From contig NZ_CP020465.1 in the NCBI RefSeq assembly GCF_002076895.1, forward strand, positions 2,914,001 through 2,978,000: DNA of 64,000 nucleotides. The letters are read 5' to 3'. Position 1 is the first letter of the stretch; each line of letters opens with the position of its first letter. Positions 54,616 to 62,760 of this stretch are shown here, in pieces. The notes beneath the pieces are model-generated. The model searched no databases. It was given only the letters and a program-made list of their open reading frames with translations, and was not told the origin of the DNA. Made by a program: the position numbers and the translations under genes. This DNA is from Cognaticolwellia beringensis. GTDB lineage: Bacteria; Pseudomonadota; Gammaproteobacteria; Enterobacterales; Alteromonadaceae.

Positions 54616-55557
54616 GTGACCGCCGTTATTTTGATTAAAAGTTTTTTCTCAGCCAAGCTCATACTTATCGCTATGAGCTATATTTTATTGCTGTCTAGTT
54701 TTATGACGACGGTAAGTTTTGCAAAAATATATTCGCTACCTGAGGCAGGTTCAAGATTAATTGGTGAACCGCAATATCATGAAGTTGCCAAGGGGGATTA
54801 CTTTCAACTTATTGCTGAGCAATATGATGTCGGTTTTCTTGCGCTAATGGCCGCCAATCCTGGTGTTGATCCTTTTTTACCTACTGTTGGGCATAAACTG
54901 GTTATTCCAACTCAAATGCTACTGCCGTTTGGCAAGCGTGAAGGTATTATTATTAATTTGCCCGAGTTACGCTTGTATTATTTTCCCGAAAATAGTGACA
55001 AGGTGCATGTTTTCCCCGTTGGCATTGGCAGACAAGGGTTAGAAACGCCTAAGACGGTGAGTTACATAAGTGAAAAACGTAAAGATCCTGTTTGGCGTCC
55101 AACAAGTGAAATGAAAGCGCGTTATTTTGCTGAACATGGCAGGAAGTTAGCTGATGAAGTGCCTGCAGGACCTAAAAATCCATTTGGTAAATATGCCTTA
55201 CGTCTAGGTACAAGTGTCTATTTATTGCATGGGTCAAATCAGCGTTTTGGTATTGGTATGCGAGCTAGCTCAGGCTGTATTCGCTTATATGATGATGATA
55301 TCGAGTGGCTATATCAGCATATTGAAATCAACACACCGGTGCGCATTGTTGATCAAACAATAAAATTATCCTATGAACCCGATAAAAGATTAATAGAAGT
55401 ACATAGCCCACTAACAGGTGATGATGGTGATGTAAGTAAAACTGAAATCACTCCTGCTGTAACAGCATTTGTTGGCGACTCACCTGACGATAAAATGCTC
55501 TTACTAGATCAAGTCGAAAACCCAAAAGGTTTAGTCACGCAATTGCATGTGCATTAA
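54616..55557 (+). CDS. L,D-transpeptidase with LysM domain (ErfK/YbiS type)
   Basis: 313 residues from the GTG at 54616 (GTAGAGTG context); the ATG at 54673 could instead be used. N-terminal membrane or signal segment (ending TVSFA), LysM domain at about 55-100 (YHEVAKGDYFQLIAEQYDV), then a YkuD catalytic domain with HGSNQRFGIGMRASSGCIRL and catalytic C221. Such enzymes cross-link peptidoglycan or attach Braun lipoprotein to it. The next gene, convergent across a shared terminator, encodes a Braun-type lipoprotein with a C-terminal Lys, so Lpp anchoring is the more likely role. Confidence 0.92.
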   Translation: MTAVILIKSFFSAKLILIAMSYILLLSSFMTTVSFAKIYSLPEAGSRLIGEPQYHEVAKGDYFQLIAEQYDVGFLALMAANPGVDPFLPTVGHKLVIPTQMLLPFGKREGIIINLPELRLYYFPENSDKVHVFPVGIGRQGLETPKTVSYISEKRKDPVWRPTSEMKARYFAEHGRKLADEVPAGPKNPFGKYALRLGTSVYLLHGSNQRFGIGMRASSGCIRLYDDDIEWLYQHIEINTPVRIVDQTIKLSYEPDKRLIEVHSPLTGDDGDVSKTEITPAVTAFVGDSPDDKMLLLDQVENPKGLVTQLHVH

Positions 55558-55652: not shown

Positions 55653-55913
55653 TTACTTTTTATAGCTAGCAACGACATTATCAATACGTTCGTTGGTATC
55701 TTTTACAGCTTGGTTTGTTTGCTCTTGTGCCATTCCCAATTCGTTTACTTCAGCTGAAACAGCTTTAGTTTGAGAAGATAAGCTATTCACTTTTTCTGTT
55801 AAATTATCAACTTTTTGGTTTAATTGTGAAATATTTGCTTCTAGTGCTGAGTTATTTGCACAACCGCTAATAATGGCAACTAAGGCTACAAGCGTTAATT
55901 TTTTTAATAACAT
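55653..55913 (-). CDS. Braun-type (Lpp-like) outer-membrane lipoprotein
   Basis: 86 residues: a lipoprotein signal with lipobox ISGC (Cys at about residue 18), then a continuous heptad-patterned helix (ISQLNQKVDNLTEKVNSLSS and onward) and a C-terminal YKK. The terminal Lys is the residue that L,D-transpeptidases link to peptidoglycan in E. coli Lpp. It is somewhat longer than E. coli Lpp (78 residues with signal). CAGGGATCCC precedes the ATG. Convergence with the L,D-transpeptidase gene supports an enzyme-substrate relation; this is inferred. Confidence 0.88.
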   Translation of the reverse strand: MLLKKLTLVALVAIISGCANNSALEANISQLNQKVDNLTEKVNSLSSQTKAVSAEVNELGMAQEQTNQAVKDTNERIDNVVASYKK

Positions 55914-56117: not shown

Positions 56118-56606
56118 TTATTTATTAAGTGCTTTGGTTAACGCTTCTAATTTTTCTTCTAACGCTAAAAGTTTTTTATTAATTTCTGTGTTTTGAGCAA
56201 TAATTTGTGAGTTTTGCATTCTTAACTCTCGATTTTTAATATTGGTATCAGCAAAGCCAAATATTTTATTAACAAATACCGCCCCCATGCCGCCAAGTAA
56301 ACCGATACCCAAAATAAACATAATAAAGACAGATGCTCGGCCAATAAAACTGATGGGATAAACATCGCCAAAACCAATGGTAGTAGAGGACATGACCATC
56401 AGCCAAATGGCATCTGCATAGCTTTTAACAGGTGAATCTGTAAGCCCGAGTTCAGCTTGATAAGTGATATAACCTAATGATAAATTTAAGGACAAAAATA
56501 AAACTAAAGAGATAGTGCCAATAAAGCCGTAGTTGTAGTTTTTTACCCCGAAGTCATCAACACGGTATAAATTAGTTTTTTCCATAGCTTTTTGAACGAC
56601 TATCAT
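56118..56606 (-). CDS. Two-TM potassium channel (Ion_trans_2 type)
   Basis: 162 residues. Two membrane segments (about 27-47 and 90-112) flank a pore loop whose filter reads TTIGFGDVYP, the K+-channel signature. A C-terminal coiled coil (about 125-160, IIAQNTEINKKLLALEEKLE) probably supports tetramerisation; no RCK nucleotide domain is present. AGAGG lies six bases before the chosen ATG. It is the last gene of the PspA-DUF2170 unit. A weak double hairpin (56061-56103) follows without a T run. Confidence 0.88.
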   Translation of the reverse strand: MIVVQKAMEKTNLYRVDDFGVKNYNYGFIGTISLVLFLSLNLSLGYITYQAELGLTDSPVKSYADAIWLMVMSSTTIGFGDVYPISFIGRASVFIMFILGIGLLGGMGAVFVNKIFGFADTNIKNRELRMQNSQIIAQNTEINKKLLALEEKLEALTKALNK

Positions 56607-56662
56607 TTGAACCTCTTACTTACATTGTCTAATGGTTGAAACTAATTAAATAAAGCTCAGCG

Positions 56663-56992
56663 TTAATCAATTAGGGTGTTATCAACGTAATTGATTAAAT
56701 CATCCATTAATTTTTTCTTAATTTCAAGTTGTTGTTCTGCAAGCAAGTCATACTTTTCGCCAAGCAAAGCATAATCATCAGCAGATAAGCTGACGGTTAA
56801 TCTTGGGCGCTTTGGACGTTTGTTAGTTGGTAGCCCTAAAATATCTCTAATTTGCTCTGAAGGGCTAATACCAGCCTCCAAAGCTTGCTTTCTAATGGCG
56901 AGCTGAATTTTTTCATCCATATCAAAAGCAACTTGTACCGCTTTTACTGCTTTGATTGATGATTGCCATTTCTCGGGGATTTTTCGCGACAC
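56663..56992 (-). CDS. Ribbon-helix-helix protein, candidate regulator
   Basis: 109 residues. The stretch AVQVAFDMDEKIQLAIRKQA and the following GISPSEQIRDILGL show the beta-strand/helix/helix pattern of ribbon-helix-helix DNA-binding proteins. A second, similar pattern occurs after a basic linker (RPKRPRLTVSLSADDYALLG), suggesting two RHH-like halves or an RHH plus helical dimerisation part. The gene starts two bases after the stop of the DUF2491-like gene and precedes the channel gene. It could be the regulator that binds the GACATA(A/T)TATGTC palindromes of this island. That link is my inference, and non-DNA roles are possible. Confidence 0.65.
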   Translation of the reverse strand: MSRKIPEKWQSSIKAVKAVQVAFDMDEKIQLAIRKQALEAGISPSEQIRDILGLPTNKRPKRPRLTVSLSADDYALLGEKYDLLAEQQLEIKKKLMDDLINYVDNTLID

Positions 56993-56994
56993 AA

Positions 56995-57633
56995 TTAACT
57001 CCCTGGATACATATCAACAATATCTGTGGTGGGTCTAAATAAGGTTAAAAATACTTCGGTGTCACCGTCTTGCCACACTTCAATATCTAGGCCTTTGTCT
57101 TGGTCTTCATTAAACAGTGCATATAGTTCAAACTGCTCGCCGCTGTCCTTACCTTCATAGGCTGAAAGTGCATCTTTGCGATAATCTTTACGATGAAAGT
57201 AACCCACTTGCGCATAGCTACTTTGCTGGTAAATTTCGCTGCTCCAGCCGGCAGTATTGTTGCTATCTTTTATACGCGTTAATTGAGCTTGGCCGGGTTC
57301 ATCGAAAACTTCAGCAAATTGCTCAAGATCAAACAGTGTTTCAACATCTTGATGTAATATTTTCAGGGAAAACTTTAAGTAGGTTTTATCGTCAACGTCC
57401 AATGTTAAGTATAACTCTAAGTCATTATTGCCTTGTAAAACCCACTCAGCTTGAGTTTTATGCTCAAATTCATAACTGTTAACCGCACTGACTTGAAATT
57501 CTTGTGCTCGCAGTGCCGTTGGCAAACCAAAACTGTCTGACATAACAATAATATCACCTAAGGTGAGTTCTTTGACATTATTGAGTTTGCGCTCTTGTGT
57601 TGGCTTTTTGAATATGTTTTTAAAAAAACTCAC
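56995..57633 (-). CDS. DUF2491/YjfK-like protein
   Basis: 212 residues, soluble, acidic. It begins MSFFKNIFKKP and has the modules LGDIIVMSDSFGLP, DLELYLTLDVDDKTYLKFSL and GLDIEVWQDGDTEVFLTLFR. I place it with the DUF2491 (YjfK) family from its context after DUF2170 and PspA, as in the E. coli yjfIJK order; a DUF4178-type relationship is possible. It has no obvious catalytic motif. It is separated from pspA by a strong terminator hairpin, so its expression may depend on read-through or on its own promoter. Confidence 0.65.
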   Translation of the reverse strand: MSFFKNIFKKPTQERKLNNVKELTLGDIIVMSDSFGLPTALRAQEFQVSAVNSYEFEHKTQAEWVLQGNNDLELYLTLDVDDKTYLKFSLKILHQDVETLFDLEQFAEVFDEPGQAQLTRIKDSNNTAGWSSEIYQQSSYAQVGYFHRKDYRKDALSAYEGKDSGEQFELYALFNEDQDKGLDIEVWQDGDTEVFLTLFRPTTDIVDMYPGS

Positions 57634-57683
57634 TGTTTGCTCCGAATATTATGGCGAATAATCGACCTAAATTAAGCTAAAAA

Positions 57684-57712
57684 ACCGCTTTGCATCATAA
57701 ATGCAAAGCGGT
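57684..57712 (-). terminator. Terminator hairpin inside the PspA operon
   Basis: A perfect 12-bp stem, ACCGCTTTGCAT / ATGCAAAGCGGT, followed on the minus strand by TTTTTT. It lies between pspA and the DUF2491-like gene, both on the minus strand, and would reduce transcription of the distal three genes. Confidence 0.85.
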
Positions 57713-57728
57713 GATAGCAATGTGTTAT

Positions 57729-58418
57729 CTACTTTTGTTTAGCTTTTAAACGCTCTAATACTGAATTTGCGTTGTTGTCACTAGCGCCAATGCCTGCTTC
57801 TTTAAGCTTAGCCTCAAGTGAAGTATCTGAGTTTTCAGATTCTAACACTTCTGCCGCTTTCATTCGATCATCAAACTTTTGTTGCTTAGCTTTAATGCGC
57901 TCTAAAGAGTCTTTAGCGTTTAATAGCTTAGAATTACTTGATGAAAAGTTATCGGTAATTGCTGAAGTGGCTTTTTGCACGCTTTCTGTGGTTTTCACCA
58001 TAGATAATTGACGCTTGTATTCAGCCACTTGACGTTCACTCTTTTTCACTAGCTCTTTTAAGCGCTCAGCATTTCCTTGGAAGCTATCAAGTGCTTGCTG
58101 CTGTGTGGTGAGTTCATTTTCAAGCGTTGATATTTTTTCAGCAACAGCTAAAGCAAGTTCGTCGTCACCTTTTTCAAGGGCTTGAACGGCATAGCCTTCA
58201 TGTTCAACTACTTCACGCTTGATGCGTTCAACGTCACGGCTAGATGACATTTGTTGGGCCATAACACCGGTTAAATCTCGTTTAGCTTTGGTTAAGTGGT
58301 TTTCTGCGTCACGAATTTCTTGTTCAAAAATACGGGTAGCATTTGAGTCAATAATTGATTCGCCCACTTCAGTTGCACCGCCGCGAATGGCGGTCATAAT
58401 TTTTTTAAAAATACTCAT
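57729..58418 (-). CDS. PspA/IM30 family membrane-remodelling protein (YjfJ-like)
   Basis: 229 residues, almost wholly coiled coil. Family features: an N-terminal amphipathic stretch (MSIFKKIMTAIRGGATEVGE), then DSNATRIFEQEIRDAENHL, a long helical hairpin with KGDDELALAVAEKISTLENE at its tip, and a polar C-terminus ending SVLERLKAKQK. PspA proteins polymerise on damaged inner membrane and relieve envelope stress. No pspBC or pspF is present. Its neighbours (DUF2170, DUF2491-like, DUF350, spermidine-synthase-like) correspond to the YjfIJKL type of PspA cluster rather than the classical pspABC operon. Confidence 0.9.
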   Translation of the reverse strand: MSIFKKIMTAIRGGATEVGESIIDSNATRIFEQEIRDAENHLTKAKRDLTGVMAQQMSSSRDVERIKREVVEHEGYAVQALEKGDDELALAVAEKISTLENELTTQQQALDSFQGNAERLKELVKKSERQVAEYKRQLSMVKTTESVQKATSAITDNFSSSNSKLLNAKDSLERIKAKQQKFDDRMKAAEVLESENSDTSLEAKLKEAGIGASDNNANSVLERLKAKQK

Positions 58419-58441
58419 AATAATACTCCTAAGGTGGCTGC

Positions 58442-58855
58442 TTAAATTAAGTAATCACTCATGTCGTCAATAATTTCTAGTGCATTGTTGCTCAATACCG
58501 CTAGTTCGTGTTCGATATCATCAAAGGTAGAGCTAATAGCCAGCGCACCAAAAATGACATATTTATCACCAATTTTTGAAAATGAAGATAACGGCATTGG
58601 AATGTTCATTTCTAACATACTTACGTGCATCTCATTCAATTTGTTTGCTTTAACTTCTTCTTCACCCCAGAGGTAAGTGATACAAAGAATTTGATCATCG
58701 GTTACCGAGACAAAAATAGGTAACTCTTCACGGCCAAATACTGTTATTTGTAATACATCAACTTCACCTGAAATAGGTTGGCAATCAAAAACCATGCCCG
58801 TGTCAGAATCATCTGCCAAGGTATTTAAGTAGTCAGCTATCTTATGAATATTCAT
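58442..58855 (-). CDS. DUF2170 protein (YjfI-like)
   Basis: 137 residues from the ATG at 58855 (MNIHKIADYLNTL), chosen because GAGG lies six bases upstream; the frame also has ATGs at 58861 and 58867. The fold looks alpha/beta: FDCQPISGEVDVLQITVFGR, ELPIFVSVTDDQILCITYLW, VIFGALAISSTFDDIEHEL. The length and position immediately before a PspA gene match YjfI of the E. coli yjf cluster. Function unknown. It is the first gene of the transcription unit DUF2170-pspA-DUF2491-RHH-channel, 23 bases before pspA. Confidence 0.82.
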   Translation of the reverse strand: MNIHKIADYLNTLADDSDTGMVFDCQPISGEVDVLQITVFGREELPIFVSVTDDQILCITYLWGEEEVKANKLNEMHVSMLEMNIPMPLSSFSKIGDKYVIFGALAISSTFDDIEHELAVLSNNALEIIDDMSDYLI

Positions 58856-58911
58856 GTTCATCCTCATGTTCTAATAAGTAGCGTAAAATCAGCAAAACTG
58901 CTTTTACTAAC

Positions 58912-58960
58912 GACATATTATGTCGCACTGGGTTAATTTAGCATTGTGACATAATATGTC
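58912..58960 (-). promoter_or_regulatory. Promoter with two palindromic operators for the DUF2170-pspA operon
   Basis: Two 13-bp palindromes, GACATATTATGTC (58912-58924) and GACATAATATGTC (58948-58960), have centres 36 bases apart; each extends to 15 bp with its flanking base. On the minus strand the upstream one overlaps TTGACA, followed after 16-17 bases by TAAATT/AAATTA, so it covers the -35. The other lies near the predicted start point. This is a typical repressor layout. The same palindrome occurs at 62747-62759. Confidence 0.75.
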
Positions 58961-59007
58961 AAGTGCTAATTCATTTTATTTCTTCACTTAGTTTAACTTA
59001 ATCACTC

Positions 59008-60714
59008 TTACTGTAAATGGGCATTATTTAACCCTTGTTGATCTTGCCAAGCTTGTTGATGTAATTGATAAATGGCATGACTGCCAAGGTAATTAATTGG
59101 CACCGAATCACTATCTAGATAAAAATCACGCGAAAACTCAAAAGCATTGGTCACCATAGGTAATGTTAGCCAATGGTGTGAAACTGGTAGTTCTGGCAAG
59201 CTGTTTAGTCTTGATAATGGACTCGCGCCCATTTTACTGGCAATAGTCCAGCCCCATTCGCCAAAACTGGGTACGTTGTCATGATATTGCTGAACGGTCG
59301 AGTAGCCAGCAGCTTGAACGGTTTTACCAATGGCGATAAAAGCATTTTTAGCGTGATAAGGACTGGCTGATTGAATACCAATTAAACCATCGCCAGCCAA
59401 TAATTGCTTTAAGCGGGCATAAAAGTTTACCGAATAAAGTTTATTTAGGTCAGGGTGGCTAGGATCGGGTAAATCAACGATAATAGCGTCGAATGTTTGT
59501 CCGCTTTGTAAAAGTTTATCGATAGCGATAAAGGCATCAGCAGAAATAATGTCAACACGTTTGTCACGTAAACTGGCGGCATTTAAGTCTTCAATGGCGT
59601 TAGCAAGTGATAACGGTAATTTATCATGTGGATGCTTAAACAGCTCAATAAGCTCAGTGTCTAAATCCACTAAAGTAACTTTTTTAGGCTGCCATTGTAA
59701 AACATCTCTGAGTGCTAAGCCGTCACCACCACCAATAATAAGAATGTTATCATGGCGTGCTGACCCCGCTAATACAGGGCTAACTAAATAACTGTGGTAA
59801 ATAAACTCATCTGAAGATGAAAACTGTAAGCGACCGTTTAAATAGAAGTTAATAATGTTGCCATCGTTAGGCCCCATATTTCTTTGGGTAAAAGTCAGTT
59901 GTTGAAAACGGGTTTTATCGCTGTAAACGACTTTATCGAGGTACAGCAAGTTACTCATTTGGCTTAACCAACTATTGCCATATTGATATATAGCTAAAAT
60001 CAATACTAGCAAAACACCATGCGCTGCAATTAAGGTTTTTCGCCAGGTAAGTTTTTGCCAGTAATAGAGTATAAATATGATACCTGCGGACAGGTTTAAT
60101 GCAGCCGTTAATGCGCTTGCTTTACTTATGTCTATTGATAATAAAAATATAACCCAAATCGCCGCGCCGATACCTGCGCCGATATAATCAGCGCCGTAAA
60201 TAGTTCCTAAGTTATTTTTAAGATGCTTTTGATGTATTTCTTCACGAATACGCGCAATTAGCGGTATTTCCATGCCAATAAAAAAACCTAAAATGAAGCC
60301 GAAAAAGTAAGGGCTATTAAAGGCAATAAAGCTCAGTTGTTTAAATAGGCCTCCGCGTGGGTATGCGTCTGGCGGCAAGTTGAACATGCTACCTAATATC
60401 TCAGGAAAGGTTTGCGTTAGCGCTATCAGTCCGCCAATGATCAATATTGAGCTACTACCTAGAAATGCGATGGTAAGCTCTAGCCAAACAAAACCATTAA
60501 AAGCGCATTGAATTTTCCGTGCTGCAAATGCTCCTAAGCCCATAGCGACAATCATTAGGCCGATCATGGCGTATATGGTGCTTTCCATGATGCCAAGCAC
60601 GCGACCAGCATAATGCGATAAAAGGTATTCGTATATCAACCCACAACCTGCTAAAACAGCCATGGTTAAAATCAGGAGAATATCGTCCCAAAGCCGACTT
60701 CTGTTGATGATCAT
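59008..60714 (-). CDS. Membrane-embedded spermidine-synthase-like aminopropyltransferase
   Basis: 568 residues. The N-terminal half (about 1-255) has seven or so membrane segments (TMAVLAGCGLIYEYLLSHYA; IYAMIGLMIVAMGLGAFAA; FFGFILGFFIGMEIPLIARI). The C-terminal half is a spermidine-synthase fold with DNILIIGGGDGLALRDVL, VTLVDLDTELIELF, DAFIAIDKLL and IIVDLPDPSHPDLNKLYS. Soluble SpeE uses decarboxylated SAM to add aminopropyl groups; the substrate of membrane-fused members is unknown and methyl transfer cannot be excluded. No SAM decarboxylase gene is present here. It is the third gene of the lipoprotein-DUF350 unit. ATAGGAATATCC-type spacing (AGGA) precedes the ATG. Confidence 0.85.
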   Translation of the reverse strand: MIINRSRLWDDILLILTMAVLAGCGLIYEYLLSHYAGRVLGIMESTIYAMIGLMIVAMGLGAFAARKIQCAFNGFVWLELTIAFLGSSSILIIGGLIALTQTFPEILGSMFNLPPDAYPRGGLFKQLSFIAFNSPYFFGFILGFFIGMEIPLIARIREEIHQKHLKNNLGTIYGADYIGAGIGAAIWVIFLLSIDISKASALTAALNLSAGIIFILYYWQKLTWRKTLIAAHGVLLVLILAIYQYGNSWLSQMSNLLYLDKVVYSDKTRFQQLTFTQRNMGPNDGNIINFYLNGRLQFSSSDEFIYHSYLVSPVLAGSARHDNILIIGGGDGLALRDVLQWQPKKVTLVDLDTELIELFKHPHDKLPLSLANAIEDLNAASLRDKRVDIISADAFIAIDKLLQSGQTFDAIIVDLPDPSHPDLNKLYSVNFYARLKQLLAGDGLIGIQSASPYHAKNAFIAIGKTVQAAGYSTVQQYHDNVPSFGEWGWTIASKMGASPLSRLNSLPELPVSHHWLTLPMVTNAFEFSRDFYLDSDSVPINYLGSHAIYQLHQQAWQDQQGLNNAHLQ

Positions 60715-60754
60715 GGATATTCCTAGCTTGAGTTATTTACTTTTAAGTGACAGG

Positions 60755-60790
60755 AAAGTCATCAAACGCATAAGAGCGCTTGATGACTTA
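60755..60790 (-). terminator. Hairpin between DUF350 and the aminopropyltransferase gene
   Basis: AAGTCATCAAACGC / GCGCTTGATGACTT, a 14-bp stem with one mismatch and a 6-base loop. Only TTTCC follows on the minus strand, so it is at most a partial terminator or an RNA processing or stability element. Confidence 0.5.
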
Positions 60791-60811
60791 AATAGAAAAG
60801 TTGCGATAAGG

Positions 60812-61714
60812 TTATGACATTAACGCCGTTAAAATAAGTGCGATAGAAATACTAATCGCCATTTCAACACTGGCAACACCAATATTGTGTTGTTGGTCTA
60901 CTTCTTCAACTAAGTTGATGCCCATTAGTACTAGGCGTTTAGCAATTGAGGTGAGTAGAGCAACCAATAGGGTCATGATCATACCAAAGACTAACCAGCC
61001 GACTAAGTTAACCAATAAAGTATCTGGGCTATAAGTTAAAAAGTGACTGGCAGCTGTTACGGCTAAGGCGGTACTAATAGCTTGGCCCGCGTAGCGAATG
61101 GCTAAAGCGACGTGACCTTCAGCAAAAGCGCTTTGCATGCTGTGATTCTGATTGTTTTTCGCGTATTGACGTTCTTTAAGACGAGTAACTAACACTAACA
61201 TAGCTTGTGAAACAATAAAGCCGGCAACAATAGCCGTAAATGTGCTGATGTCTAAGCCATAAACCCACAGTAATACGGCGCGAATAACGATGGCCGTGGC
61301 AATTGCACCTGACGCATCGACGATGCCAACAGCAATATTACGTGATTTAATTTCTGCGTTTTTGTCTATTTTATTTAAGGCAAAGCGGTCATGAAAAATT
61401 CGGCCAATTTTAATTAAAATTAATCCTAAAATTCCGTAACTTGCCATACCGATAATTTCCATCAAATAACTTTCAGCATTTTCACCTGTAATAGCACCAG
61501 TTAATACAATGCCTAATGCTGCAACACTGCCTGCAACACTGATACCAAAGGCAAAGTTATCTTCTTTGGCAAGCTCGTCGGTTGAATTTACTTTGGCCGA
61601 CAAACCGCTGATGAAGCGCATTGCGCCAAGTAATATAATAGCAATGGTAATATCGATAGCTAAGAAAATTAATAGCTCTATATTTAGGCCTGTTATTTCA
61701 ATAAAGGTATTCAT
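60812..61714 (-). CDS. DUF350 membrane protein, duplicated form (YjfL-like)
   Basis: 300 residues, about eight membrane segments arranged as two DUF350 halves: the first at about 12-150 (AIDITIAIILLGAMRFISGL, FAFGISVAGSVAALGIVLTG) and the second at about 155-300 (VNLVGWLVFGMIMTLLVALL, NIGVASVEMAISISIALILT). DUF350 proteins are small membrane proteins of unknown function that accompany PspA and polyamine genes. The stop of the lipoprotein gene is eight bases upstream, so the two are co-translated. Its two-fold repeat is clear from the recurring NFAFGIS / NIGVASV helices. Confidence 0.88.
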   Translation of the reverse strand: MNTFIEITGLNIELLIFLAIDITIAIILLGAMRFISGLSAKVNSTDELAKEDNFAFGISVAGSVAALGIVLTGAITGENAESYLMEIIGMASYGILGLILIKIGRIFHDRFALNKIDKNAEIKSRNIAVGIVDASGAIATAIVIRAVLLWVYGLDISTFTAIVAGFIVSQAMLVLVTRLKERQYAKNNQNHSMQSAFAEGHVALAIRYAGQAISTALAVTAASHFLTYSPDTLLVNLVGWLVFGMIMTLLVALLTSIAKRLVLMGINLVEEVDQQHNIGVASVEMAISISIALILTALMS

Positions 61715-61722
61715 ATTTATCC

Positions 61723-62700
61723 CTACTTTCCACGTCTAAAGCTACGTGACGTTGTACTCTTACTATTTCTAAAACTAGCATTTTTGGCACTTTTACTTGA
61801 TTTTGCATAAGCGCTTTTATTGGTCGTTTTGCTAGCAAATCGATTGGCACTGGTTTGTGCACTTTTACTTTGACTAGAGATACTTGACGCGCCCGTTCTA
61901 TTTTTACTGTAAGCGCTAGTATATTTTTGGCCACGGCTTTGAAACGATTTTTTAGTGCGGGTATCTAAATCAGTTTGTTTACGAAGCTGATCGGGTGAAC
62001 TATAACGCTTGCGACCATAATCATTGTAATAACTATAATTTCGGCCACGGCCCCAATCACTATAACTCGTGCGTCGTGAACCAAATACGTCTCCCATCAT
62101 CGAGTACATACCATACCAAGCCCAAAATGACATGCCATTAGAGCCAGACGTCCAACTTCCGTATGATGGATTGCCAATAAGTTGTTCTCCAGTGCCAAAG
62201 TCTTGCGCCTTATTGGCCGCCATACTTTGTGCTTTGGACATGGCATTAACACGCGGCAAAGTTCCGTCAGACATATCAGCTAAAACATTGAGTGGGTCGC
62301 TTAATGCATCAGAATATAAAACTGGATCGGCAGCTTGATACAGGTTTAATAGTTCATCATAAATAGCTTGAGAATTCTCAAACATTTGTGGTTGAGTTTT
62401 TACCGTGTTTAATCGATCAACTAAAGCAACAAACATCGGGCCTTTAGTGCCAGTGTCTTTTAAAAACTCGTCAATTAGCGGTTTATAACTTGGTTTACTT
62501 TGTAATAGTCTTTCTCCGTACTGGCTAATTAAATTAGCATTACGAACTTGCCCATTCGCCAGTGCTTTAGCAAGTAGTTCAATACGTTGTTCTGTGAGTG
62601 GAATTTGCTGGGTGATTTGCTCTTTTATTGGATCTGTACAAGCGAAGAGCAATAACGTCAGCAAGAGTATCATTAATTTTAGCGGCTGCATTCCTGCCAT
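61723..62700 (-). CDS. Putative lipoprotein with basic Ser-rich tail
   Basis: 325 residues from the ATG at 62700 (MAGMQPLKLMILLL), chosen because GAGGA lies just upstream; the frame is open to 62742. A lipobox-like LLFAC ends the signal (Cys near residue 21). Residues about 25-130 are helical (TEQRIELLAKALANGQVRNA; PLIDEFLKDTGTKGPMFVAL). A glycine- and aromatic-rich segment follows (SYGSWTSGSNGMSFWAWYGM, YSDWGRGRNYSYYNDYGRKR), then a highly basic Ser/Lys/Arg tail ending SFRRGK. I recognise no family. First gene of the DUF350-aminopropyltransferase unit. Confidence 0.75.
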   Translation of the reverse strand: MAGMQPLKLMILLLTLLLFACTDPIKEQITQQIPLTEQRIELLAKALANGQVRNANLISQYGERLLQSKPSYKPLIDEFLKDTGTKGPMFVALVDRLNTVKTQPQMFENSQAIYDELLNLYQAADPVLYSDALSDPLNVLADMSDGTLPRVNAMSKAQSMAANKAQDFGTGEQLIGNPSYGSWTSGSNGMSFWAWYGMYSMMGDVFGSRRTSYSDWGRGRNYSYYNDYGRKRYSSPDQLRKQTDLDTRTKKSFQSRGQKYTSAYSKNRTGASSISSQSKSAQTSANRFASKTTNKSAYAKSSKSAKNASFRNSKSTTSRSFRRGK

Positions 62701-62729
62701 ACTGTCCTCAAAAATGCTATGGTTATCAT

Positions 62730-62760
62730 TCATTAATACCATTTATGACATATTATGTCT
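62730..62760 (-). promoter_or_regulatory. Promoter and palindromic operator for the lipoprotein-DUF350 operon
   Basis: GACATATTATGTC at 62747-62759 is identical to the operator at 58912. On the minus strand it gives TAGACA (-35), a 17-base spacer and TATTAA (-10), so the palindrome begins at the -35 exactly as in the DUF2170-pspA promoter. It lies 47 bases upstream of the lipoprotein start. Confidence 0.75.

What the first reader, a model, noticed from the sequence alone, without database searches (positions are those of the whole stretch)
56118..62760. PspA-centred envelope island with polyamine-type enzyme, DUF350, K+ channel, RHH protein and lipoprotein
Eight adjacent minus-strand genes combine DUF2170, PspA/IM30, a DUF2491-like protein, an RHH protein, a two-TM K+ channel, a seven-TM spermidine-synthase-like enzyme, a doubled DUF350 protein and a novel basic-tailed lipoprotein. 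The YjfIJKL-type core is known from gene neighbourhoods in E. coli and others, but its biochemistry is largely undescribed. The variant here adds the channel, RHH protein and lipoprotein and lacks the ATP-grasp glutathionylspermidine ligase and SAM decarboxylase. One model is a membrane-damage response pairing PspA scaffolding with K+ flux and modification of membrane or polyamine components by the fused enzyme. It is inserted between ygiF and glnE, which are adjacent in E. coli.
Basis: partly seen in the sequence, partly recalled or inferred. Interest (0 to 1): 0.78.

Follow-up and report, generated by a model that had tools for sequence, protein, structure and literature searches.

The report
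Membrane-stress operon with its own repressor
This is a known type of bacterial membrane-protection gene cluster, but it carries a small predicted DNA-binding protein whose likely binding sites also sit in front of other membrane-repair genes around the chromosome, which points to an undescribed switch for membrane stress.

Summary
The eight minus-strand genes are there, between ygiF and glnE. One label is wrong: the 'DUF2491-like' gene is a sub-threshold DUF4178. The cluster is a published PspA gene context (PMC11237479), lipoprotein and sometimes RHH gene included. Only the K+ channel is not listed there for that group, and it is optional (38 of 80 named loci).

The 13-bp palindrome GACATAWTATGTC occurs at seven places in this 4.66-Mb genome: three in the island's two promoter regions, the others before nfeD-stomatin, a second pspA-pspC operon, htpX and nhaA. 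Of 147 genomes, 65 have palindrome and RHH homologue, 3 RHH only (with variant palindromes), 2 palindrome only. Thirty genomes with DUF2170 but no RHH have none. In 80 of 80 named loci two palindromes lie 35-39 bp apart around the DUF2170 promoter. Of 86 off-island loci fetched from 24 RHH+ genomes, 59 precede PspA, SPFH/NfeD, HtpX or NhaA genes.

Best reading: the RHH protein autorepresses the island and controls an inner-membrane-stress regulon. Binding is inferred, not shown. The 'aminopropyltransferase' has no detectable SpeD partner in this genus.

The parts
62747..62759 (.). Palindrome GACATAWTATGTC (operator 1 site) before the lipoprotein gene; overlaps the -10-like CATAAT of a predicted promoter (62779-62752)
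61723..62742 (-). Lipoprotein gene with basic tail; the true start may be a later Met, just before the LLFAC lipobox
   Evidence: lipobox by eye
60812..61714 (-). Doubled DUF350 membrane protein
   Evidence: (124.2 bits, two stretches)
59008..60714 (-). Membrane-fused spermidine-synthase-like enzyme (PRK03612)
58948..58960 (.). First palindrome before DUF2170; contains the -35 box TTGACA (58962-58957)
58935..58962 (-). Predicted sigma-70-type promoter TTGACA-16-TAAATT
   Evidence: same layout in the 40 pair sequences printed
58912..58924 (.). Second palindrome before DUF2170, 36 bp from the first
58442..58867 (-). DUF2170 protein (CesT/ExsC-like fold by relation to BacA, PDB 8q8o)
57729..58418 (-). 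PspA/IM30 protein, YjfJ type
   Evidence: 139.3 bits; only 19.2 bits to the PspA equivalog model with cut-off 242.95
57684..57712 (-). Intrinsic-terminator-like hairpin between pspA and the DUF4178-RHH genes
   Evidence: a hairpin there in 60 of 80 named loci
56995..57633 (-). DUF4178-like protein (below cut-off)
56663..56992 (-). Tandem ribbon-helix-helix (RHH) protein, proposed repressor that binds the palindromes
56118..56606 (-). Two-TM K+ channel with TIGFGD filter and a C-terminal predicted coiled-coil-like stretch; accessory member

Best explanation
The island is a known DUF2170-PspA operon type that carries its own transcription switch. The tandem-RHH protein binds the 13-bp palindrome GACATAWTATGTC. 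At the DUF2170-PspA promoter two copies 36 bp apart cover the -35 box and the region just after the -10, so bound protein would block RNA polymerase and repress the operon, its own gene included. A third copy covers the promoter of the lipoprotein-DUF350-enzyme genes. Elsewhere in the genome the same sites put a second pspA-pspC operon, nfeD-stomatin genes, htpX, nhaA with an SPFH gene and, through a one-mismatch site, yccA under the same control: an inner-membrane-stress regulon. Release is proposed to work by partner switching: membrane damage draws PspA to the membrane, which frees the ExsC-like DUF2170 protein to take the RHH protein off DNA. A terminator after pspA would keep the repressor scarcer than its sensors. 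SHOWN by computation: the palindromes, their positions, conservation and co-occurrence with the RHH gene. INFERRED: that the RHH protein is what binds them, and repression rather than activation. SPECULATIVE: the partner-switching signal (about 0.3). The confidence given is for the RHH-palindrome-regulon core.
For: Seven perfect sites in 4.66 Mb against 0.17-0.32 expected; none of the reversed palindrome. Of 147 genomes: both 65, RHH only 3, site only 2, neither 77; the three RHH-only genomes have variant palindromes at the same promoter positions. 0 of 30 DUF2170+ RHH- genomes have a site. Order-wide set of 394: 92, 24, 23, 255; 3.42 against 0.10 sites per genome. Paired sites 35-39 bp apart in 80 of 80 named loci. 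Off-island loci before PspA, SPFH/NfeD, HtpX or NhaA genes in 59 of 86; yccA site kept in 15 of 17 genomes of the genus. Strand-helix-helix twice in a predicted model, with RHH proteins among the top structural matches. Hairpin after pspA in 60 of 80.
Confidence: 0.75

Rival explanations
1. The palindrome is the site of another regulator, encoded elsewhere, that controls membrane-stress genes; the RHH gene merely travels with the island.
For: No binding was tested. G193 and a few other RHH- genomes have two or more sites. The RHH protein passes no family cut-off.
Against: Palindrome and RHH gene rise and fall together: 65 of 68 RHH+ against 2 of 79 RHH- genomes; in seven genera with both states 29 of 31 against 1 of 26. 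DUF2170-PspA without RHH has no sites (0 of 30). G193 is only 88% complete and belongs to a genus whose eight other genomes in the set are RHH+.
Confidence: 0.15
2. The RHH protein activates, or acts mainly as a local autoregulator, and the off-island sites matter little.
For: Some RHH+ genomes have on-island perfect sites only. About a third of off-island loci (27 of 86) precede unrelated or unidentified genes.
Against: The same gene classes recur before off-island sites in 23 of 24 genomes, and the yccA site is kept in 15 of 17 genomes. The first palindrome contains the -35 box, which suits repression.
Confidence: 0.2
3. One reading: PspA scaffold plus K+ flux plus aminopropylation of polyamines or membrane components is the main point of the island.
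For: The enzyme matches polyamine aminopropyltransferase strongly (592.9 bits) and keeps GGGDG. Ravi et al. suggest polyamine sensing or aminopropylation (passage).
Against: No AdoMet decarboxylase in 17 of 17 genomes of the genus, nor in 11 of the 20 genomes whose surveyed islands carry the enzyme. The channel is in 38 of 80 named islands.
Confidence: 0.15

Closest known systems
'Second major group' of PspA contexts in Ravi et al. 2024 (PMC11237479, passages read)
   Same: DUF2170(CesT/Tir)-PspA pair, 7TM-spermine synthase fusion, 8TM DUF350, a lipoprotein, DUF4178, sometimes a final RHH gene
   Different: K+ channel added here; their passages describe no operator, regulon or role for the RHH protein beyond 'transcription factor'
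'Third group' of the same paper (ATP-grasp, DUF2491, DUF1190, K+ channel)
   Same: DUF2170-PspA, DUF350, K+ channel
   Different: No ATP-grasp, DUF2491 or DUF1190 gene found among the eight; DUF350 doubled here
P. aeruginosa bac operon (PMC10948618, passages read)
   Same: DUF2170 and PspA genes; the DUF2170 protein BacA is reported to act negatively on its operon
   Different: Reported sigma-54 promoter and no spermidine-synthase gene; here a sigma-70-type promoter with palindromes
Canonical Psp response with PspF (recall)
   Same: PspA and PspC under membrane-stress control
   Different: Here a separate pspF-pspABC locus exists without palindromes; the palindromes mark a second pspA-pspC operon
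Cpx response of E. coli (recall)
   Same: htpX and yccA are shared targets as recalled
   Different: Two-component system with another DNA site; not tested here

Membership tests
Ravi 2024 group 2 PspA operon | DUF2170-PspA pair | tested here: met
   122.7 and 139.3 bits, over cut-offs
Ravi 2024 group 2 PspA operon | Spermine/spermidine synthase domain fused to an N-terminal membrane domain | tested here: met
Ravi 2024 group 2 PspA operon | 8TM DUF350 protein | tested here: met
   124.2 bits, two stretches; 8 hydrophobic segments
Ravi 2024 group 2 PspA operon | DUF4178 protein | tested here: inconclusive
   21.9 bits against cut-off 25, E 2e-4
Ravi 2024 group 2 PspA operon | Lipoprotein with Ctha_1186 domain | tested here: inconclusive
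   A lipoprotein is present; the domain itself was not in the libraries' matches
Ravi 2024 group 3 PspA operon | ATP-grasp ligase, DUF2491 and DUF1190 genes | tested here: not met
   None among the eight proteins
RHH transcription factor | Strand-helix-helix fold | tested here: inconclusive
RHH transcription factor | Sequence-specific DNA binding | not testable with these tools
   Only co-occurrence with the palindrome
Polyamine aminopropyltransferase | Family model and GGGDG motif | tested here: met
   PRK03612 592.9 bits, cut-off 472; motif
Polyamine aminopropyltransferase | Genome supplies decarboxylated AdoMet (AdoMet decarboxylase) | tested here: not met
   PF02675 absent in 17 of 17 genomes of the genus; E. 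coli control positive
Canonical PspA (TIGR02977 equivalog) | Over the curated cut-off | tested here: not met
   19.2 bits against 242.95 for the island PspA

The most novel reading that the evidence does not exclude
DUF2170-PspA-RHH is a self-contained membrane-damage sensor and transcription switch, distinct from PspF, Cpx and LiaRS: PspA senses the membrane, the ExsC-like DUF2170 protein carries the signal, and the tandem-RHH repressor controls an inner-membrane regulon (two PspA operons, stomatin, flotillin and HflKC-like SPFH genes, HtpX, YccA, NhaA) across many marine gammaproteobacteria.
Probability: 0.35. Interest if true: 0.82.

Novelty: new variant of a known kind. Interest (0 to 1): 0.66.

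Why it matters
How PspA-type systems outside the PspF/sigma-54 model are switched on is largely open. This gives a concrete regulator, a 13-bp site and a target list, testable by gel shift and RNA-seq. It would tie PspA, SPFH/NfeD membrane-domain proteins and membrane proteases together in one regulon, a link so far drawn mainly from gene neighbourhoods. It would also give a function to a protein family named 'hypothetical' or 'uncharacterized' wherever a name was given among the 120 homologues listed (of 1551).

Tried and rejected
RHH protein replaces PspF: rejected. PspF is over its cut-off in 119 of 147 genomes, this one included, and the canonical pspF-pspABC locus here has no palindrome.

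Palindrome belongs to the DUF2170-PspA pair as such: rejected, 0 of 30 DUF2170+ RHH- genomes have it.

One-mismatch sites as general targets: of five in this genome four were judged noise from their positions; only the one before yccA was followed up, and it is conserved.

Carboxyspermidine route to spermidine: nspC found only below cut-off (36.4 bits); left open.

A sequence search for solved RHH relatives (E up to 10) found nothing convincing. A deeper alignment raised pLDDT only from 71.3 to 74.7 and lost the short strands.

Searches gave nothing on the biochemistry of DUF350 or the fused enzyme in their listings. Passages of PMC4432559 and PMC9239133 were not informative on this operon.

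Not done: phylogeny-corrected test, weighted-matrix genome scan, complex prediction, sigma-54 promoter scan, fetching of the sites listed for other genomes of the same genus, and of one listed place in G103 (C2:37276, 18 kb from its RHH gene).
Full report
OBSERVATION. The eight minus-strand genes between 56118 and 62742 are real, in the order lipoprotein, DUF350, membrane-fused spermidine-synthase-like enzyme, DUF2170, PspA, DUF4178-like, RHH, K+ channel. Pfam and NCBIfam confirm DUF2170, PspA_IM30, Spermine_synth/PRK03612, DUF350 and Ion_trans_2 over cut-off. The DUF2491 label is not supported; the only match is DUF4178, just under its cut-off. glnE and ygiF are adjacent in E. coli K-12. Here an Lpp-like gene (55653-55913) and one more ORF (54616-55557) also lie between ygiF and the island.

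ALREADY KNOWN. Ravi et al. 2024 (PMC11237479; [quoted passage not shown] The window holds such an operon plus a K+ channel. In the 80 best named RHH loci (one search kept 80 of 261 relatives; most are titled Colwellia, Thalassotalea or related genera) DUF2170, PspA, DUF4178, RHH, DUF350 and lipoprotein are in all 80, the enzyme in 77 and the channel in 38. The channel is therefore an accessory. These 80 are the closest relatives; among 31 islands fetched more widely some lack the lipoprotein-DUF350-enzyme part, and my ORF filter failed to show the RHH gene in three of them (L187, L188, L216).

THE MISSED FEATURE. Reading the two promoter regions shows one 13-bp palindrome, GACATAWTATGTC, once before the lipoprotein gene and twice before DUF2170. 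In the whole 4.66-Mb genome it occurs at seven places, against 0.17 (first-order model) to 0.32 (base composition) expected from window composition. The reversed palindrome, of equal composition, occurs nowhere in this genome, in 1 of 147 genomes of the first set and in 8 of 394 of the second (table, counted by eye). The looser GACATNNNATGTC finds the same seven and no other (its reversed control finds three).

TARGETS IN THIS GENOME. The four off-island sites lie before: nfeD with two stomatin-type SPFH genes (about 56-70 bp from the start, by start chosen); a small protein, PspA and PspC (160 bp); htpX (31 bp); and nhaA followed by an SPFH gene (27 bp). Of five one-mismatch sites, one lies 126 bp before yccA, the FtsH modulator. 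That variant, GACATATTATGGC, is found in 16 of 17 genomes of the genus and lies upstream of yccA in 15 of the 17 (125-127 bp in 14, 79 bp in one with a longer ORF call); of the other two, one has its only copy elsewhere and one, a 66%-complete genome, has none. The canonical pspF-pspABC locus has no site.

WHO READS THE PALINDROME. Among 147 genomes, 68 have an RHH homologue and 67 a perfect palindrome: both 65, RHH only 3, palindrome only 2, neither 77. The three RHH-only genomes, all one genus, have GACATTTAATGTC and an imperfect TTGACATATAATG[A/C]C at the same two promoter positions. DUF2170 is in 98 of the 147; the 30 with DUF2170 but no RHH have no palindrome. In 394 genomes drawn across the order the table is 92, 24, 23 and 255, with 3.42 sites per RHH+ genome and 0.10 per RHH- genome. 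Of the 24 RHH+ genomes without a perfect site, 22 belong to the genus with the variant centre (three of its genomes were inspected). Exceptions against the reading: G324 and G381 (RHH+, no perfect site); G193 (88% complete, RHH-, four sites); G365, G041 and G167 (RHH-, two each). In seven genera with both states, read off the tables by hand, 29 of 31 RHH+ and 1 of 26 RHH- genomes have a site. The eighth, g62, is the variant genus: 1 of 23 RHH+ and 1 of 1 RHH- have a perfect site. The two sets overlap, nothing is corrected for phylogeny, and on-island sites travel with the gene.

PROMOTER ANATOMY. All 80 named loci have a close pair of palindromes, 36 bp apart in 52, 35 in 23, 37 in 4 and 39 in 1. 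In the 40 pair sequences printed, the first palindrome is preceded by TT so that it contains TTGACA, and TAAATT (TACATT in one) follows at -10 spacing, with the second palindrome beyond it. This suits repression. Of 97 off-island sites in RHH+ genomes, 53 also read TTGACATA in one orientation. A terminator-like hairpin lies between pspA and DUF4178 in 60 of 80 loci, against 1 of 80 between DUF2170 and pspA and 5 of 80 between DUF4178 and RHH. The repressor may thus be made in smaller amounts than PspA and DUF2170.

REGULON ACROSS GENERA. From the 29 genomes (whose list of places was cut before the end, so G104 and G137 are missing) and from G019, G035 and G065, I fetched 89 off-island loci: 86 from 24 RHH+ genomes and 3 from two RHH- genomes. 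One listed place of G103 was left out. By gene similarity and family search 59 of the 86 precede NfeD-stomatin (14), NhaA (13), a PspA operon (12), HtpX (9), YqiJ/flotillin (5), HflKC-like SPFH (5) or YjfJ-type PspA (1); 27 precede other or unidentified genes; 0 of the 3 RHH- loci is of these classes. 23 of the 24 genomes have at least one such target. The class lists were made by hand from the script output; in a few loci the class gene is second in line or up to 410 bp away. A binomial figure rests on an assumed 1% background and is not used as evidence. Some RHH+ genomes have on-island perfect sites only.

ENZYME. PRK03612 and solved spermidine synthases match, but no AdoMet decarboxylase is detected in this genome or its genus (17 of 17), nor in 11 of 20 genomes with the enzyme in surveyed islands; 9 of the 20 do have it. 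Unless another source of decarboxylated AdoMet exists, the enzyme may use a different donor or acceptor.

SIGNAL. By recall, E. coli PspA inhibits PspF directly. BacA, a DUF2170 protein, is reported to resemble ExsC in structure and to affect its operon negatively (PMC10948618; abstract and passages). Two surveyed islands have DUF2170, PspA and RHH but no DUF4178 (G102, G104). This suggests PspA as sensor, DUF2170 as go-between and RHH as switch; it is a hypothesis without direct evidence.

VERDICT. The island itself is a known kind. The palindrome regulon and its tie to the RHH gene are, as far as the searches named in Tried and rejected show, undescribed, and directly testable.

Noticed in passing
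55653-55913 (-): Lpp/OprI-type alanine-zipper lipoprotein gene next to the island (NCBIfam 45.3 bits, cut-off 43); an Lpp-like gene is near the RHH gene in 50 of 80 named loci.
   Followed up: partly
L225, L227 and window 57729-58418: This genome has three PspA genes: pspF-linked pspABC without a palindrome, a second pspA-pspC operon with one, and the island's YjfJ type.
   Followed up: yes
L187 and L165 (genome G110): Here the RHH homologue lies on a different contig from the YjfJ-type pspA gene and its two palindromes, a natural separation of proposed regulator and target.
   Followed up: no
L102, L104, L114: In three genomes a palindrome lies before or within the start of related genes; one of them, L104, matches eukaryotic-type carbonic anhydrase (grouping).
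   Followed up: partly
L097 and L137; L134: Other off-island palindromes precede a Yip1-domain gene followed by an HlyD-type gene (L097; L137 groups with it), and a short YidC-like insertase gene (L134).
   Followed up: partly
window 59008-60714 (-): Spermidine-synthase-like enzyme in a genus without detectable AdoMet decarboxylase; nspC only below cut-off. How this genome makes spermidine, if it does, is unclear.
   Followed up: partly
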